Shown piece after piece: positions 57,333 to 64,000 of a stretch of DNA of 64,000 nucleotides. A model generated the notes under the pieces. It was not told the origin of the DNA and searched no databases. It saw only the letters and a list, made by a program, of their open reading frames with translations. Made by a program: the position numbers and the translations under genes. The stretch is from a virus. The stretch is from positions 98,188 to 162,187 of the IMG/VR virus record IMGVR_UViG_3300023174_000058; one strand, 5' to 3'. Each line of letters opens with the position of its first letter. Within the stretch, counting starts at the first letter, position 1.

Positions 57333-59783
57333 ATGGCTATTGAAAAGTTCCGCTTTGTATCCCCCGGCGTACAAATCAATGAAATAGACGAAAGCATCGT
57401 TACCCCAACCCAACCAGCAATTGGTCCAGTTGTTATTGGTCGCACAGCTAAAGGCCCAGCAATGCAACCAATTATTGTCAGCAATGTCAGCGAATTAGAA
57501 AGAGTTTTCGGTGGCCCTACAAATGGCGTTGTAAGTGCAGTAGATGTTTGGCGTACCGGCGCTCCAACTGCTCCAACTTTTGCAACATATGCAGCAAAAG
57601 CATTCTTACAGAATGCATCACCAGTAACAGTGGTTCGTCTTGCTGGCGTTGATCAAGGTGGTACAACCGCCACCCCCGGCTGGATTACTGATGGCGCATA
57701 TCACATTTACGCAGTAAGCGGTACAACTGCTGTATTAGCTGGTGTTGTTTATACAGATAGCGGATCTGCATTAGGTGTTTCTGGTGCTCTTGGATTTACA
57801 AGCAATGGCTCAAGCTCATATACTTCAAATCAAGGTAACCTATATTTAAGCTCATCGACTGGCGGGACAGGCAGCGCAATCCCATTCTCATTTGTTGCCT
57901 CTTCCGGCTCATTCTTAAGAAACGTATTAAATACAAATCCAACCTTACTTTCCTCAGAAGGTCACTTCTTAGGTGAATCATTTGAGAATTCATTACCAGC
58001 CGCGATTACACAAGTTTATGTTTCACAATCATCAGCTTGGAGAACTCATACAAGTGCATCAATTAGCGCAGAAAGCGGTTGGGTTACAAGTGATCACGCA
58101 AGCGGATCAGACCCAGTTAATCTATTCAAATTTGTTGGTCTTAACAGCGGAGCAAGCCTTTCAAAAGAAATTAAAATTTCAATTGAAAATGTTCGCGCTT
58201 CAAGAAACACAAATGTAACAAAATACGGTACATTTGATGTTGTTGTTCGCAAGCTTTATGAAACCGCTGGAGATTCCGCGTTAGAAAGATTTACAGGAGT
58301 TTCACTAGATCCAACATCAGATGATTTTATCGTTAGAAGAATTGGTGATTCATACCGTCAATGGGATGCAACAAACAGTCACTACGTTGAATATGGATCA
58401 TACGCAAATCGTTCAGCTTATGTTCGTGTTGAAATGAACGCGGATGCTTCAATTGAGCCAACTGCACTACCACACGGTTTCCGCATCAAAGGTGTTCCTG
58501 ATCTTGGTACCGTTGGCGGATTAACTGCCCAACATGCAGACATTGAACTACTAGAAAGCTCAGTTCGTTTATCCGCAGCTAAAACAACACGCTTTGGTCT
58601 AGTTGCTGACAAGACAGGCAACGCTGATCTCGTAGACATTCTCGGTCAAAAACCAGCTGTTGCCGTTGAAGATGATTTGCTTTTCAGCACAAGATATGTA
58701 AGCAGTTCAGCCACTGCAGTTCAATATGTTGATGGTGTATATAACTCAACTGATGTGCTAACAGCGGGAACAATTTCTGGCTTCACAATGCCAATGTATG
58801 GTGGTTTTGATGGCGCTGACATTACAGAAGCAGAACCATTCGTAAACGCATTTGTACTAAATTCAGGGGATGAAACAAGCAATGCTGCTTATCGTTCAAT
58901 CAAACAAGCAATTGATATTGTTTCAAACCCTGAAACGGTCGATATGAACCTTCTTTGCGTACCAAACTTAAAGAACGAAACACTAACAAGCTACATGATC
59001 AGCGTTTGCCGCGCCCGTGGTGATGCAATGGCGATCATCGACCTTGATGGCGATTATGAATATTCATGGGAGACAAATGACAAAAAAGAATCCCGTCCAC
59101 TAAATACATCAGCTGTTATTCAAAATCTAACAGAGCGCGCTATTGATGACAGCTACGGTGCAGCATACTTCCCATATGTATTCGTAGCAAGCGAAGGTAT
59201 CTTTATGCCATCTTCAATCGCAGCACTTGGCGCTTATGGTGGTACAGAAGGTCGCAGTGCTCTATGGTTTGCACCAGCTGGCTTCAACCGTGGCGGCTTA
59301 ACCGAAGCTAATGCCGGTATCGGCGTAAGCCGTACAGCACTACAATTAAACGCAACAGATCGTGACGATCTATACACTGTAAACATTAACCCAATTGCTA
59401 CCTTCCCAAACGAAGGCGTGCTAATCTTCGGTCAAAAGACTCTACAAGTTACACCAAGCGCGCTTGATCGAGTGAACGTTCGTAGATTACTAAACTATAT
59501 CAAGAAAGAAATTTCACGCGCCGCAACCCGCGTCCTATTTGAGCCAAACATTGAAGCAACTTGGAATAACTTCAAGGGTGTTGTTGATCCATTCCTTCTT
59601 GCTATCAAAAATGCTTATGGTCTTGAAGATGCAAAAGTTGTATTAGACAGTACAACAACAACCGCAGATCTTGTAGATCGTAACATCATGTACTGCAAAG
59701 TATTTGTCAAACCAACCAGAGCAATTGAATACATCGCAATTGATTTCGTAGTAACAAACTCTGGCGCAGCATTCACAGAATAA
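57333..59783 (+). CDS. Tail sheath protein (gp18-like)
   Basis: 816 residues. N-terminus 'FVSPGVQINEIDESIVTPTQ', then 'PAIGPVVIGRTAKGPAMQPI' and 'VSNVSELERVFGG', the hallmark of contractile sheath proteins. C-terminal domain: 'NPIATFPNEGVLIFGQKTLQ', 'ALDRVNVRRLLNYIKKEIS' and 'LFEPNIEATWNNF', equally typical. About 150 residues longer than T4 gp18, with extra Ser/Gly-rich material in the outer domains (~130-350). It contracts to drive the tube into the cell. Codon choice is C-richer than in neighbours, fitting high expression. AGGAGA site. Confidence 0.97.
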   Translation: MAIEKFRFVSPGVQINEIDESIVTPTQPAIGPVVIGRTAKGPAMQPIIVSNVSELERVFGGPTNGVVSAVDVWRTGAPTAPTFATYAAKAFLQNASPVTVVRLAGVDQGGTTATPGWITDGAYHIYAVSGTTAVLAGVVYTDSGSALGVSGALGFTSNGSSSYTSNQGNLYLSSSTGGTGSAIPFSFVASSGSFLRNVLNTNPTLLSSEGHFLGESFENSLPAAITQVYVSQSSAWRTHTSASISAESGWVTSDHASGSDPVNLFKFVGLNSGASLSKEIKISIENVRASRNTNVTKYGTFDVVVRKLYETAGDSALERFTGVSLDPTSDDFIVRRIGDSYRQWDATNSHYVEYGSYANRSAYVRVEMNADASIEPTALPHGFRIKGVPDLGTVGGLTAQHADIELLESSVRLSAAKTTRFGLVADKTGNADLVDILGQKPAVAVEDDLLFSTRYVSSSATAVQYVDGVYNSTDVLTAGTISGFTMPMYGGFDGADITEAEPFVNAFVLNSGDETSNAAYRSIKQAIDIVSNPETVDMNLLCVPNLKNETLTSYMISVCRARGDAMAIIDLDGDYEYSWETNDKKESRPLNTSAVIQNLTERAIDDSYGAAYFPYVFVASEGIFMPSSIAALGAYGGTEGRSALWFAPAGFNRGGLTEANAGIGVSRTALQLNATDRDDLYTVNINPIATFPNEGVLIFGQKTLQVTPSALDRVNVRRLLNYIKKEISRAATRVLFEPNIEATWNNFKGVVDPFLLAIKNAYGLEDAKVVLDSTTTTADLVDRNIMYCKVFVKPTRAIEYIAIDFVVTNSGAAFTE

Positions 59784-59808: not shown

Positions 59809-60333
59809 ATGGCATTCTGGTCAGATCCTAACCTAGATCCAAAGCGTCAGTTTAAATTTAAAGTTTCATTCAGCCGCTTAGGTTTAAATTCAACATTTCT
59901 TGCACAAAGCGCTACCCGCCCACAATTTACAATTGGTGATGGTACAAAAGTAGACTTTCTTGATAAATCATTTCACTTCCCCGGTAAAGTGACTTGGGAT
60001 CCTGTTACGATTACATTTGTCGATGCAGTATCTGCAAACGTATCAAAAGATTCCTATAGATATCTACAGGAAGCTGGCTGGGTAAATCCAGCTGCTGTTG
60101 GTGGTGTTCCAGCAACAGCAAATTTTGCTACAATCGGAAAGCTAGGCGCAGTCGGCACTTCAGGCAGAGTTCTTATTGAAGTATTACGCTCAACAGGCGA
60201 AGTAGAAGATCGCTGGACACTAAACAATGCTTGGATTACAAAAGTTGCATTAAATGAACTAAACTATACAGCAGAAGGCATCTTAACTGCTGCTTATACG
60301 TTCCGTTACGATTGGGCCGAAATCGTACTATAA
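59809..60333 (+). CDS. Tail tube protein (gp19-like)
   Basis: 174 residues (T4 gp19: 163). 'AFWSDPNLDPKRQFKFKVSF', 'KSFHFPGKVTWDPVTITFVD', 'EDRWTLNNAWITKVALNELN' and 'AYTFRYDWAEIVL' mark the tube fold. Hexameric rings stack inside the sheath. TTAGGAGAA upstream; 25 bases after the sheath stop, as in T4 where 18 and 19 are adjacent. Confidence 0.93.
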   Translation: MAFWSDPNLDPKRQFKFKVSFSRLGLNSTFLAQSATRPQFTIGDGTKVDFLDKSFHFPGKVTWDPVTITFVDAVSANVSKDSYRYLQEAGWVNPAAVGGVPATANFATIGKLGAVGTSGRVLIEVLRSTGEVEDRWTLNNAWITKVALNELNYTAEGILTAAYTFRYDWAEIVL

Positions 60334-60386: not shown

Positions 60387-61259
60387 ATGGCCTTCTGGAA
60401 TAACCCATCTGAATTGACCCCTAAACAGAGTCACAGGTGGGTTATTTCATTTGGTGAACATGATATACAAAAGACTGATTCAAGCGCAACTAGGAATATA
60501 ATTCCTTTTTATTTTGCTAAAAGCATTGATAAGCCTTCCTATGAAATAGGCATTCAGCAAGCAAAATATCTTTATTCTCATACTTTTAATTTTCCAAAAA
60601 GATTAACATGGAAACCTATAACAATTACTTTCTATGATGTAATTGCTGAAAAAACAAATACAAGTTTTTTATTTAAACCAACGGTTAGCACAATAGGCGA
60701 GCTTAATAGTGTCATTACACAATCAGATGCAATAAGAACTAATGAAACTATTAGTATTACTGAAGCTGACATATATGCTAAAAATTCAACACAGCTATTT
60801 TTTTATAAATTCTTACAAGAAAGTGGCTATTTTGACCCAGAAGAGTATAACAAAGAAGACCAGCTGTTAAGATTTAGAAAATATAATTTTAAAAAGGATA
60901 TGATAAAAGCTTTAGTAGGCCAGCAAGCAGATTTTTGGGGAAACGTTAAATCTTTTCCTGTAGATACAGATTTATGGAAGACGTTAAATATAATAGAATT
61001 AAATCCAAATGGTAAACCAATAGAAACTTGGAAATTGTACGCTCCATTAGTTACGGACGTAAAATTTGATAGATTAGATTATTCAAATGAAAACGTTTTA
61101 TCTGTGACCGTTACAATAAACTATGATTGGGCAAAACTACAACCAGAAAAAATATATAAAAATTTTAAAACTTACGACATTCAGCAAGCAAAAGGTGTTT
61201 CTGGCTTACCAACTGTAATCGGGGTAGAGTCAAGTATTGGAATAAATGAAGATAAATAA
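60387..61259 (+). CDS. Second tail-tube-fold protein (tube initiator / gp54-like or gp19 paralogue)
   Basis: 290 residues. Ends match the tube protein: 'AFWNNPSELTPKQSHRWVIS' at the start, 'HTFNFPKRLTWKPITITFYD', and 'IETWKLYAPLVTDVKFDRLD' with 'TVTINYDWAKLQP' at the end. A ~90-residue insert sits between (~95-190). In T4 the tube-like proteins gp48 and gp54 sit between the baseplate hub and the tube, so a tube-initiation or tail-terminus role is plausible. The reading frame continues openly for 43 codons beyond the TAA at 61257-61259 (see the next entry). Confidence 0.7.
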   Translation: MAFWNNPSELTPKQSHRWVISFGEHDIQKTDSSATRNIIPFYFAKSIDKPSYEIGIQQAKYLYSHTFNFPKRLTWKPITITFYDVIAEKTNTSFLFKPTVSTIGELNSVITQSDAIRTNETISITEADIYAKNSTQLFFYKFLQESGYFDPEEYNKEDQLLRFRKYNFKKDMIKALVGQQADFWGNVKSFPVDTDLWKTLNIIELNPNGKPIETWKLYAPLVTDVKFDRLDYSNENVLSVTVTINYDWAKLQPEKIYKNFKTYDIQQAKGVSGLPTVIGVESSIGINEDK

Positions 61260-61391
61260 TATAATAATTTACAAAAATTTAATTATACTTATAAATCACT
61301 ATCAACAAACTCTTCGTTAACTGTATTAAATACAGAAAATCTTGGTAGCGGAGAAAGACAAGTGTTAGAAGATATTTTAAAAGAAAGGTAA
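61260..61391 (+). other. In-frame 43-codon open extension after the stop of the second tube-like gene
   Basis: Immediately after TAA (61257-61259) the same frame stays open for 43 codons to a second TAA at 61389-61391, three bases before the next ATG. It reads YNNLQKFNYTYKSLSTNSSL, later 'ENLGSGERQVLEDILKER'. There is no ATG or TTG in it, and its only GTG is near the end, so it could only be translated by stop readthrough or if the TAA is a recent mutation or a sequencing error. It fills the 132-base gap to the next gene. Confidence 0.4.
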
Positions 61392-61394
61392 TAT

Positions 61395-62279
61395 ATGAAA
61401 TCGAATACAGAAAATCATTTTGAAGCATTAAAACAACAAGCAGTTCAACAGCAAGTGGCTCCACAAGTAGCAGCAACAGGTTCCCCATTAAGTTTCGTAG
61501 TACCAACAGAATTAGTTGAATTACCTTCTCGTGGCTTGTTTTATCCCGAAGGACACCCTCTTCACGGAAAAGAAGGTGTTGAAATAAAACAAATGACCGC
61601 TAGAGAAGAAGATATTCTAACAAATAAATCCTTTATTAAAAAAGGTGTTGTTATTGATAAACTAATTGAATCTTTAATTGTAGATAAAAGTATTGCCGTA
61701 TCATCATTGCTTGTTGGAGACAAGAATGCAATCATGGTTGCCGCCCGTATAGCAGCATACGGATCAGCGTATGATGTTATGGTCACTTGTTTAGAGTGCG
61801 GTTCAAAAAATCAATTAGGAATCGATCTACAAGAAATAACAGTACGCGATACAGGCAAGATAGATGAAACTGTTGCTAGTAATCCAAAATTAGCGCACGA
61901 AAGACTACCAAGCGGAAATATTGTTATTAAACTTCCAAAGTGCGGTTGGGATGTCACTTGTAGGCTATTAAACGGCGAAGATGAAAAAAGCCTACTTTCA
62001 TTTCTTGAAGCAAAAAAGAAAGCGTATCCACAAGATAACGAACTAGCTCTTTCTGAACAACTATATTTTATTGTTGAAAGCATCAACGGCGTAACAGATA
62101 AAAAAGTATTACGTGATGCGATTGGCTTAATGCCAGCCTTTGATGCAAAGCATCTACGTACAACATATGCTAAATTAATTCCAAACGTAGCAATTGAAAA
62201 GAAATTCACTTGCGTTTCCTGTTCAGGCGAACAAGAGTTGGAGGTTCCATTTACGCAGGAATTTTTTTGGCCTAAGTGA
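61395..62279 (+). CDS. Baseplate hub protein gp26-like (T4 baseplate family), possible tape-measure chaperone
   Basis: 294 residues. 'ELVELPSRGLFYPEGHP', 'KQMTAREEDILTNKSF' and 'RIAAYGSAYDVMVTCLECGS' fit the T4 gp26-type family (Pfam T4_baseplate, as I recall). CxxC pairs at 'CLECG' and 'CVSCSG' suggest zinc binding. The last codons run GAA TTT TTT TGG CCT AAG TGA: a seven-T tract seven codons' worth of sequence before the stop region, with another ORF open in the +1 frame. It lies two gene positions ahead of the tape measure gene, where other phages encode the G/GT tail chaperones. AAAGG upstream. Confidence 0.7.
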   Translation: MKSNTENHFEALKQQAVQQQVAPQVAATGSPLSFVVPTELVELPSRGLFYPEGHPLHGKEGVEIKQMTAREEDILTNKSFIKKGVVIDKLIESLIVDKSIAVSSLLVGDKNAIMVAARIAAYGSAYDVMVTCLECGSKNQLGIDLQEITVRDTGKIDETVASNPKLAHERLPSGNIVIKLPKCGWDVTCRLLNGEDEKSLLSFLEAKKKAYPQDNELALSEQLYFIVESINGVTDKKVLRDAIGLMPAFDAKHLRTTYAKLIPNVAIEKKFTCVSCSGEQELEVPFTQEFFWPK

Positions 62280-62442
62280 TAGCTACCAAAAAAGCCTATA
62301 TGAACAACTGTTTCTTTTACAGTATTATGGAAGGTGGTCATTTATAGAGCTTTATAACTTGCCAATTGGTCTGCGTGAATGGTACATGACACGTTTGGGT
62401 GACGAAATAAAACAGCAAGCAGAGCGAGCAAAAGGTAAATAA
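62194..62442 (+). CDS. Overlapping ORF, likely expressed as a frameshift extension of the gp26-like gene
   Basis: Open frame offset by +1 relative to the gp26-like gene. The only upstream start is a TTG at 62194 that has no ribosome-binding site, and no ATG lies before the core. The convincing protein sequence begins near 62269: LSDSYQKSLYEQLFLLQYYG, then 'WSFIELYNLPIGLREWYMTR' and a basic Gln/Ala end. This looks like a real conserved domain without its own start, as expected if ribosomes shift on the T7 tract (62262-62268). It ends just before a strong terminator. It occupies the place of T4 gene 51, but no similarity can be claimed. Confidence 0.55.
   Translation: MKRNSLAFPVQANKSWRFHLRRNFFGLSDSYQKSLYEQLFLLQYYGRWSFIELYNLPIGLREWYMTRLGDEIKQQAERAKGK
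62262..62268 (+). promoter_or_regulatory. Candidate slippery site for +1 (or -2) ribosomal frameshift
   Basis: Seven consecutive T bases preceded by GAA. In the zero frame they read TTT TTT T(GG); skipping one T, or slipping back two, continues in the downstream frame as GGC CTA AGT GAT. Both slips keep UUU under Phe-tRNA. Confidence 0.45.
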
Positions 62443-62518: not shown

Positions 62519-64000
62519 ATGGCAGATATTCCCCCCAAGCCTACTATTGATCTAAAACTTTCCGATACTCTCAACGAAGCTGGACAATCAGCAGAGCGTC
62601 TTGCAACGTCTGTTGCTGGAGCTCAAGCAAGTATACAATCATTAGAATCTGCGGCAAAAAATTTTTATAAGCTCATTACAGAACAAGGCGCTTCTCTTGA
62701 AAAAGTTACAAAGCAATTCTATGATCAAATCGATGCAGTAACAGAGACAAGAAAAACATTTGGAGACTTTGCAGCTGCCACAGAGGGTATTAACGAAAAA
62801 ATTAATTTAATGAGCGTAGGCGTATCTCAAGCCGAAAGCGCACTTAGAGATCTTTCTACGCAACGTATTCCACTTCTTAAAGATATTAAAAAGCTCCAAG
62901 AAGAAATAAGCGAATTAAATCCAAAAATTAACGAAAGCGAAAAAGATTCATTAGATAATCTTATAGAGCAAGTGTCAAAAAGAAAGCAGCTTCTTAAAGA
63001 TGCAAACGATTTAAATAAAAATGAACAAGAAAGAGCCGACGCTTTACAAGCGTACAAAGATTTAACACAAAAATTAACAGAAGATGCAAAAAATAATTAT
63101 GCTTTACAGCTAGCTATAAAGAAAGTTGATCTAGAAATAGCAGAAGCAAAAGACAAAGAATTAGAATTATTACAAAATCAAGCAGCAGCATTAATTCCAT
63201 TATTAAACTATGAAAAGCAACGTGAACAAGCAGCAAGAAAAACAGTAGATTATATGGATAATATTGTCTCTAGCTTAACAAATGGAGCGGAAAAATCTAA
63301 CATATTTGGATCCGTTTTCTTAGCCATGCAGAAAAGTGTTGACGGCACTAAAATCGGCGTTAGTGGCCTTATGTCACTTTTTAAAGAAGGGTTAACGGAG
63401 AGTTTGTTAAATCCCGAAAAAGCCGCTAACCGTGTTTTTAACTTAATAAATGATAAGTTAATCAAATCAACTCTTGATTTTGATAGAGCGCTTGCTGACG
63501 TTGGTAGATCTGCTGGTGGTTTTCGTAAGGAGTTTGAAGGTATAGCAATGAATATGGGTGGAGTATCATTTGCCGCCCTTAGCGAATATGGCGTAACTTT
63601 AAAAGAATTTGGACAAGCATATGGATCATTAAGTAAATCAATCGGCGGATTTAATAATATGCTTAGTGCTCAAAAAAAACTATTAGTAGAAAATGCCGCA
63701 TCAATGACTGCACTTGGCGTTAGCGCAGATACATACGGTAAATTAGTTTCTAATTTTATGGGAGCATTAGGTAAGACAGCTGAAGGCAGCCGCGATATGA
63801 TTAACGCTCTTGCTAAGGATGCTATTGCGCTTGGAAAAAGTGTTGGCGAATACACATCAGAGTTTCAGAGCGCAATGAGCCGCATTAGTGGTTATGGGCG
63901 AGAAGCCACAGCAATATTTAAAGAATTAAATGCTATAGCTGTAGCCACAAAAGGCGTAATCAACGCACAAGATTTACTGTCTATTAGTGACCGCTTTAAA
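62519..64000 (+). CDS. Tape measure protein, N-terminal part (3' truncated by window)
   Basis: ATG at 62519 (TTGAGGTG upstream); the frame is open to the end of the window, 494 codons. N-terminal ~240 residues are charged coiled coil ('SVAGAQASIQSLESAAKNFY', 'LLKDIKKLQEEISELNPKIN', 'KKVDLEIAEAKDKELELLQ'). After ~260 it becomes Gly/Ala/Ser-rich helix with 'FDRALADVGRSAGGFRKEFE', 'MGGVSFAALSEYGVTLKEFG' and 'MTALGVSADTYGKLVSNFMG', the pattern of tape-measure domains ('....g.s...f..a...G'). It sets tail length; T4's is gp29. No membrane segment is seen so far; those usually lie further on. Position after the gp26-like genes fits. Confidence 0.8.
   Translation, partial: MADIPPKPTIDLKLSDTLNEAGQSAERLATSVAGAQASIQSLESAAKNFYKLITEQGASLEKVTKQFYDQIDAVTETRKTFGDFAAATEGINEKINLMSVGVSQAESALRDLSTQRIPLLKDIKKLQEEISELNPKINESEKDSLDNLIEQVSKRKQLLKDANDLNKNEQERADALQAYKDLTQKLTEDAKNNYALQLAIKKVDLEIAEAKDKELELLQNQAAALIPLLNYEKQREQAARKTVDYMDNIVSSLTNGAEKSNIFGSVFLAMQKSVDGTKIGVSGLMSLFKEGLTESLLNPEKAANRVFNLINDKLIKSTLDFDRALADVGRSAGGFRKEFEGIAMNMGGVSFAALSEYGVTLKEFGQAYGSLSKSIGGFNNMLSAQKKLLVENAASMTALGVSADTYGKLVSNFMGALGKTAEGSRDMINALAKDAIALGKSVGEYTSEFQSAMSRISGYGREATAIFKELNAIAVATKGVINAQDLLSISDRFK

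What the first reader, a model, noticed from the sequence alone, without database searches (positions are those of the whole stretch)
62194..62442. Programmed frameshift from the gp26-like gene into a start-less ORF before the tape measure gene
Seen: the gp26-like frame ends at 62279; an ORF in the +1 frame overlaps it, has no ATG and no ribosome site, and has protein-like sequence starting where the first gene ends. A seven-T run lies at 62262-62268 exactly where the frames can be joined. Known: in lambda-like and many other long-tailed phages the two genes before the tape measure are joined by a frameshift (G/GT, -1; Mu uses -2) and make tail chaperones. Inference: this T4-like phage makes a long and a short form of its gp26-like protein, and gp26 family members may be the myovirus counterpart of G/GT.
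Basis: partly seen in the sequence, partly recalled or inferred. Interest (0 to 1): 0.75.

Follow-up and report, generated by a model that had tools for sequence, protein, structure and literature searches.

The report
+1 frameshift in tail-assembly chaperone gene
A large group of T4-like viruses of bacteria seems to make a short and a long version of one tail-building helper protein by having the ribosome slip one base forward at a nearly unchanging run of T's; the trick is known from other phages, but this forward-slipping version in the T4-type gene is, as far as I could check, undescribed.

Summary
The gp26-like gene (61395-62279) overlaps a +1-frame ORF without a credible start, and T7 at 62262-62268 is where the frames join. 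The arrangement recurs in 285 of 323 related loci (173 non-redundant junctions). At the join every one has UUU followed by a pyrimidine, usually UUU UUU UGG CCU, so tRNA-Phe can re-pair one base forward. In a 72-locus subset the +1 frame is open through the tail in 72/72 and each other frame is closed in 72/72; 11/72 have no start codon from the upstream stop to mid-tail. A nested clade carries the canonical -1 heptamer A_AAU_UUC instead and has its tail in the -1 frame; another lineage has its own ATG. The tails are homologous to cyanophage 'gp51', which profile comparison links to the C-terminus of T4 gp51. The pair is therefore the short/long tail-assembly-chaperone system. That T4 gp26/gp51 play this role, and polyT -1 sites in T4-like phages, are published (Vladimirov 2022, known only through citing papers). 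New here are the conserved +1 polarity and the polarity switch. Plus-one fits all junctions; -2 fits poorly in 8 of 173. No experiment confirms it.

The parts
57333..59783 (+). Probable tail sheath gene (context)
   Evidence: Position only: directly before the tube genes, and annotated sheath genes hold this place in relatives; its family was not searched here
59809..60333 (+). gp19-like tail tube gene (context)
   Evidence: phrog_4542 tail tube E 1.5e-21
60387..61259 (+). Second gp19-like tube gene (context)
   Evidence: phrog_4542 E 6e-17
61395..62279 (+). gp26-like gene = short tail-assembly chaperone (294 aa)
   Evidence: Pfam T4_baseplate PF12322 E 2e-14, phrog_150 E 3e-15; SD-like AGAAAGG at 61382-61388
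62262..62268 (+). Slip site UUU UUU U (frame 0: TTT TTT TGG)
   Evidence: TTT TTT in 70/72 loci; UUU_Y in 173/173 non-redundant +1 junctions
62269..62273 (+). GGCCT, read in both frames (Trp-Pro in frame 0, Gly-Leu in +1)
   Evidence: Wobble T of CCT invariant in the +1 group; CCT/CCC/CCA in members whose tail is not in the +1 frame
62269..62442 (+). C-terminal tail of the long chaperone, +1 frame (57 aa + stop); open frame from 62194
   Evidence: Relatives in +1 frame in 285 loci; profile match to cyanophage gp51 tails E 4.5e-8; predicted all-helical, pLDDT 90
62519..64000 (+). Probable tape-measure gene, cut by the contig end
   Evidence: Position; the next large gene is annotated tape measure in L102 and L105; coiled-coil-like

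Best explanation
The gene makes two proteins. Most ribosomes stop at 62279 and give the 294-aa short chaperone. A minority slip forward by one base at the U-run (peptidyl-tRNA-Phe moves from UUU to the overlapping UUU or UUC) and read on to 62442, giving a 348-aa long chaperone ending ...QEFFGLSDSYQK...KGK. By analogy with lambda G/GT the common domain would coat the tape-measure protein and the rare tail would recruit tube subunits. Shown by sequence: the dual coding, the conserved site, the homology and the gene order. Inferred: that the shift happens, +1 rather than -2, its efficiency, and the assembly role.
For: Junction identical in type in 285 loci, 173 non-redundant, all with UUU_Y. 0/72 stops in 51 +1 codons versus 72/72 in each other frame; third-position bias switches from frame 0 to the +1 frame across the T-run. 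26/72 loci have no ATG/GTG/TTG between the +1-frame stop and the T-run, 11/72 none before +97; several have that stop 5 or 11 nt before the T-run, so the +1 frame can only be entered at or next to the run. The T of CCT is invariant although it is a wobble base in frame 0 and CCT is 33% of Pro codons elsewhere. Natural switch: a 100/99-supported nested clade has A_AAU_UUC (in all members read), tail in -1 frame and a freed Pro codon; two loci with their own ATG lack UUU_Y. Tail homologous to cyanophage gp51 (E 4.5e-8), which matches the T4 gp51 C-terminus (E 4.9e-6). Gene order tube, gp26, tail, tape measure.
Against: No proteomic, ribosome-profiling or reporter data. No conserved downstream RNA structure (7 of 8 loci without significant structure) and SD-like sequence upstream of the run only in part of the group, so the stimulator is unknown. 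-2 slippage is possible at the window's own site. The window tail alone does not match Pfam or PHROGs, and the direct profile match of A2 to T4 gp51 is weak (E 0.19); the link to T4 runs through the cyanophage tails. The direct match of the gp26-like set to T4 gp26 is also modest (E 0.0009).
Confidence: 0.88

Rival explanations
1. Same fusion, but made by a -2 ribosomal shift (as in phage Mu), which adds one more Phe (EFFFGLS instead of EFFGLS).
For: T7 allows tRNA-Phe at the second UUU to re-pair two bases back; the resulting frame is the same; Mu uses -2 (PMC5009743).
Against: Needs mispairing in TTC TTT TGG (4 non-redundant), TTC TTT CGT (1), TTT CTA TGG/TTC (3), where +1 by Phe re-pairing still fits. 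The rule that fits all 173 is UUU_Y, the +1 rule.
Confidence: 0.1
2. Transcriptional slippage on T7 deletes a base (or adds two) in part of the mRNAs, so that normal translation gives the fusion.
For: Homopolymer of 7, in a few loci 8 (L034, L065, L141).
Against: 29 of 173 non-redundant sites (TTTCTT, TTTCTA, TTCTTT) have no run of five or more T and keep the +1 frame; run length is held at 7 and not lengthened; bacterial slippage usually needs longer runs (own knowledge).
Confidence: 0.06
3. The tail is a separate small protein with its own start (TTG 62194 or an internal codon) by reinitiation or leaderless-type initiation; no frameshift.
For: Such a state exists: L173 and L178 have an ATG-started tail ORF after a stop. 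Some +1 loci hold upstream ATG/GTG/TTG. Absence of an SD alone is weak evidence if the host is a Bacteroidota (own knowledge).
Against: 18/72 +1 loci have no start codon before +43, 11/72 none before +97; start positions are not conserved while the slip site is; the slip site is missing where an ATG exists.
Confidence: 0.04
4. Sequencing or assembly artefact in a homopolymer, or a decayed gene.
For: Homopolymers are error-prone.
Against: Same state in 173 divergent junctions from many metagenomes, MAGs and isolate genomes, also at sites without homopolymer; tail under purifying selection.
Confidence: 0.01

Closest known systems
T4 gp26 / gp51 (short and long tail-assembly chaperones; Vladimirov, Gautam & Davidson 2022)
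   Same: Same T4_baseplate family (T4 gp26 and gp51 both hit PF12322 and phrog_150); gp51 carries the C-terminal tail; both listed as hub assembly chaperones (PMC3004832).
   Different: T4 has two separate divergent genes and no frameshift; here one gene gives both by a +1 shift.
Kyanoviridae and other T4-like -1 sites (S-SSM2, P-HM2, HTVC008M, phiN3, DLP6, KVP40-like PG216)
   Same: Shift at the homologous FF codons near the end of gp26, homologous tail (annotated gp51 or 'baseplate hub assembly catalyst').
   Different: -1 at U_UUU_UUC/U; here +1. They form a separate deep clade.
Lambda G/GT, P2 E/E+E', Mu -2 tail genes
   Same: Short form plus rare frameshift-extended form encoded between tube and tape-measure genes.
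   Different: -1 or -2; no sequence similarity tested or found to the window genes.
Haloarchaeal myovirus HSTV-2 tail genes (very likely +1); RF2 prfB +1 site
   Same: +1 polarity; prfB re-pairs CUU to UUU, one variant here is CUU_UGG.
   Different: prfB needs a stop codon at the slip site; here the stop lies at varying distance (about 15-36 nt). HSTV-2 gene family not compared here.

Membership tests
T4_baseplate / gp26 family (PF12322) | Sequence match above the curated cut-off over most of the profile | tested here: met
   54.2 bits vs 24.5, profile 12-219/219
Frameshift tail-assembly chaperones (G/GT type) | Gene pair lies between tube and tape-measure genes | tested here: met
   Window order; annotated tape measure follows in L102 and L105
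Frameshift tail-assembly chaperones (G/GT type) | Second ORF lacks its own start and is joined in another frame at a slippery site | tested here: met
Frameshift tail-assembly chaperones (G/GT type) | Both short and long products are made, at a fixed ratio | not testable with these tools
   Needs reporter or mass spectrometry
Frameshift tail-assembly chaperones (G/GT type) | Products bind tape measure and tube protein, are needed for tail assembly and absent from virions | not testable with these tools
   Known for lambda; not measured here
Frameshift tail-assembly chaperones (G/GT type) | Fold similarity to a solved chaperone (HK97 tail assembly chaperone, 2ob9) | tested here: inconclusive
   2ob9 appears at rank 5 but E 4.2, probability 0.13
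gp51 / 'baseplate hub assembly catalyst' tail | Homology of the C-terminal tail | tested here: met
   A2 vs cyanophage tails E 4.5e-8, probability 95; cyanophage tails vs T4 gp51 E 4.9e-6; A2 vs T4 gp51 directly not significant
Classical -1 heptamer frameshifts | X_XXY_YYZ in the right register and tail in -1 frame | tested here: not met
   Window tail is in +1 frame; met only in the nested clade A_AAU_UUC

The most novel reading that the evidence does not exclude
A T4-like clade with at least 173 distinct junctions found here uses a +1 frameshift defined only by UUU followed by a pyrimidine, without a stop codon or RNA structure. Within the same gene the direction of shifting has changed (+1 to -1, with exchange of the site) and has been replaced by a separate start. 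This gives a natural series for how recoding polarity evolves, and a counter-case to the statement that T4-like phages use a mechanism other than frameshifting.
Probability: 0.7. Interest if true: 0.6.

Novelty: new variant of a known kind. Interest (0 to 1): 0.52.

Why it matters
A review states that G/GT-type frameshifting is widely conserved except in T4, and the 2022 T4 study proposes another mechanism. This shows by comparison that a very common environmental branch of T4-like phages most likely does frameshift, in the rarer +1 direction, and that the direction changed within one gene while the tail was kept. It also corrects annotation: the second 'gene' is missed or called from an internal start in such genomes. 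The site could help to find and name tail-assembly chaperones, and it offers a simple +1 signal to study tRNA-Phe slippage.

Tried and rejected
Downstream RNA structure as stimulator: no consistent signal. Upstream SD-like stimulator: seen in the window's subgroup (AGGA just before the run), not general. UGG as a required slow codon: rejected, UAC or UUC stands there in some junctions. Stop codon as stimulator as in RF2: rejected, its distance varies. Phage-borne tRNA: none in the window. Fold search against the PDB for gp26 and tail: no significant match; sequence search of the PDB: none. Vladimirov 2022 could not be read, so what it says about +1 is unknown; novelty is judged from papers that cite it.

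Full report
What is there. The window is the last 64 kb of a 162-kb virus record. Near its end lie a probable sheath gene, two gp19-like tube genes, a gp26-like gene (61395-62279; PF12322 E 2e-14, phrog_150), an overlapping +1-frame ORF (62194-62442) and the start of a probable tape-measure gene. Frame 0 at the join reads GAA TTT TTT TGG CCT AAG TGA; the second ORF, read from the run, gives GLSDSYQKSLYEQLFLLQYYGRWSFIELYNLPIGLREWYMTRLGDEIKQQ.

Conservation. With profiles of gp26 and tail, 323 loci were classified: tail in +1 frame 285, in -1 frame 27, no tail found 11. After removing near-copies 173 +1 junctions remain: TTT TTT TGG CCT 128, TTT CTT TGG CCT 20, TTT TTT TAC CCT 11, TTC TTT TGG CCT 4, and a few rare forms. 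Each holds UUU followed by U or C, so the single bacterial tRNA-Phe (anticodon GAA, own knowledge) can re-pair one base on.

Dual coding. In 72 non-redundant loci the first 51 codons of the +1 frame never hold a stop, while both other frames always do; differences concentrate on third positions of frame 0 before the run and of the +1 frame after it. In 86 aligned loci the wobble bases of frame 0 upstream (-13, -10, -7, -4) carry 0.03-0.23 bit, whereas positions 0 to 11 carry 1.8-2.0 bits, including the wobble base of the Pro codon, which is the second base of the Leu codon in the +1 frame. L101 and L133 changed CCT to TCT: Pro is lost in frame 0, Gly-Leu kept in +1. In several loci a +1-frame stop lies 5 nt before the run, so entry is confined to the run and its next bases.

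Starts. 26 of 72 have no ATG, GTG or TTG between the upstream +1 stop and the run; 18 have none before +43 and 11 none before +97, which is inside the conserved tail. Start positions differ between relatives; the slip site does not.

A switch of direction. Trees of gp26 proteins give two deep sides: the +1 group with the window, and a -1 group with cyanophages, HTVC008M, phiN3, DLP6 and KVP40-like phages, whose sites are U_UUU_UUC or U_UUU_UUU. Inside the +1 side a single clade (100/99) has its tail in the -1 frame; the members read all have A_AAU_UUC, and their Pro codon varies between CCT and CCC. A second small lineage (L173, L178) has a stop between and an ATG-started tail, and no UUU_Y. 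Site and frame thus change together, as expected if the site sets the frame. Long branches make the deep placing of T4 and of MIJ3 uncertain.

What it is. The tails of the +1 group match those of the cyanophage group (hhalign E 4.5e-8), and these match the end of T4 gp51 (E 4.9e-6; phrog_634). T4 gp26 and gp51 both belong to PF12322: gp51 is the domain plus the tail. Sullivan et al. (PMC3037559) noted that cyanophage gp51 lacks the first 200 residues; in the light of the frames above this is because its N-terminal part is gp26 itself (inference). So the pair is the short/long tail-assembly chaperone, as in lambda G/GT. This role of T4 gp26/gp51 was reported by Vladimirov et al. 2022, which I know only from PMC10885494 and PMC12846349; the latter says polyT -1 signals in T4-like chaperone genes are given there.

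Direction. A -2 shift would reach the same frame. It needs mispairing in 8 non-redundant junctions (TTC TTT.., TTT CTA..), where +1 still fits; hence +1 is favoured, but for the window's own T7 the two cannot be told apart by sequence. Transcriptional slippage is unlikely, since 29 of 173 sites have no run of five T.

Limits. No expression data; stimulators unknown; host unknown; role in assembly by analogy. The sheath call rests on gene order.

Noticed in passing
L151-L161 (actinobacterial-phylum genomes): The tails weakly match Pfam DUF6760 (best E 3e-5). Full DUF6760 ORFs follow genes with T4_baseplate-like ends, perhaps in contractile injection systems. Six loci share a near-invariant junction GGGGGAATCGTGA: a GTG start overlapping the stop, or a possible GGG_G +1 slip; others have ATGA starts.
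   Followed up: partly
L173, L178: Tail carried by a separate ATG-started ORF with an extra N-terminal stretch (MNIDRFLQELQ...), slip site lost.
   Followed up: partly
L125 3289-3381, L110 16366-16503, L128 3335-3439: Annotated 'gp51'/hypothetical genes are called from internal ATGs; the open -1 frame runs back into gp26 at U_UUU_UUC or a weaker site.
   Followed up: partly
window 59809-60333 and 60387-61259: Two tandem gp19-like tube genes, the second with a long insertion.
   Followed up: no
L128, L130 (Vibrio K362, Klebsiella T751): Tail in -1 frame but the sites (A_CUU_UUC, G_AUU_UUC) are not canonical heptamers.
   Followed up: no
L106 5700-5800: 595-kb phage: gp26 end and tail do not fit either pattern; the frame-0 end looks shifted.
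   Followed up: no
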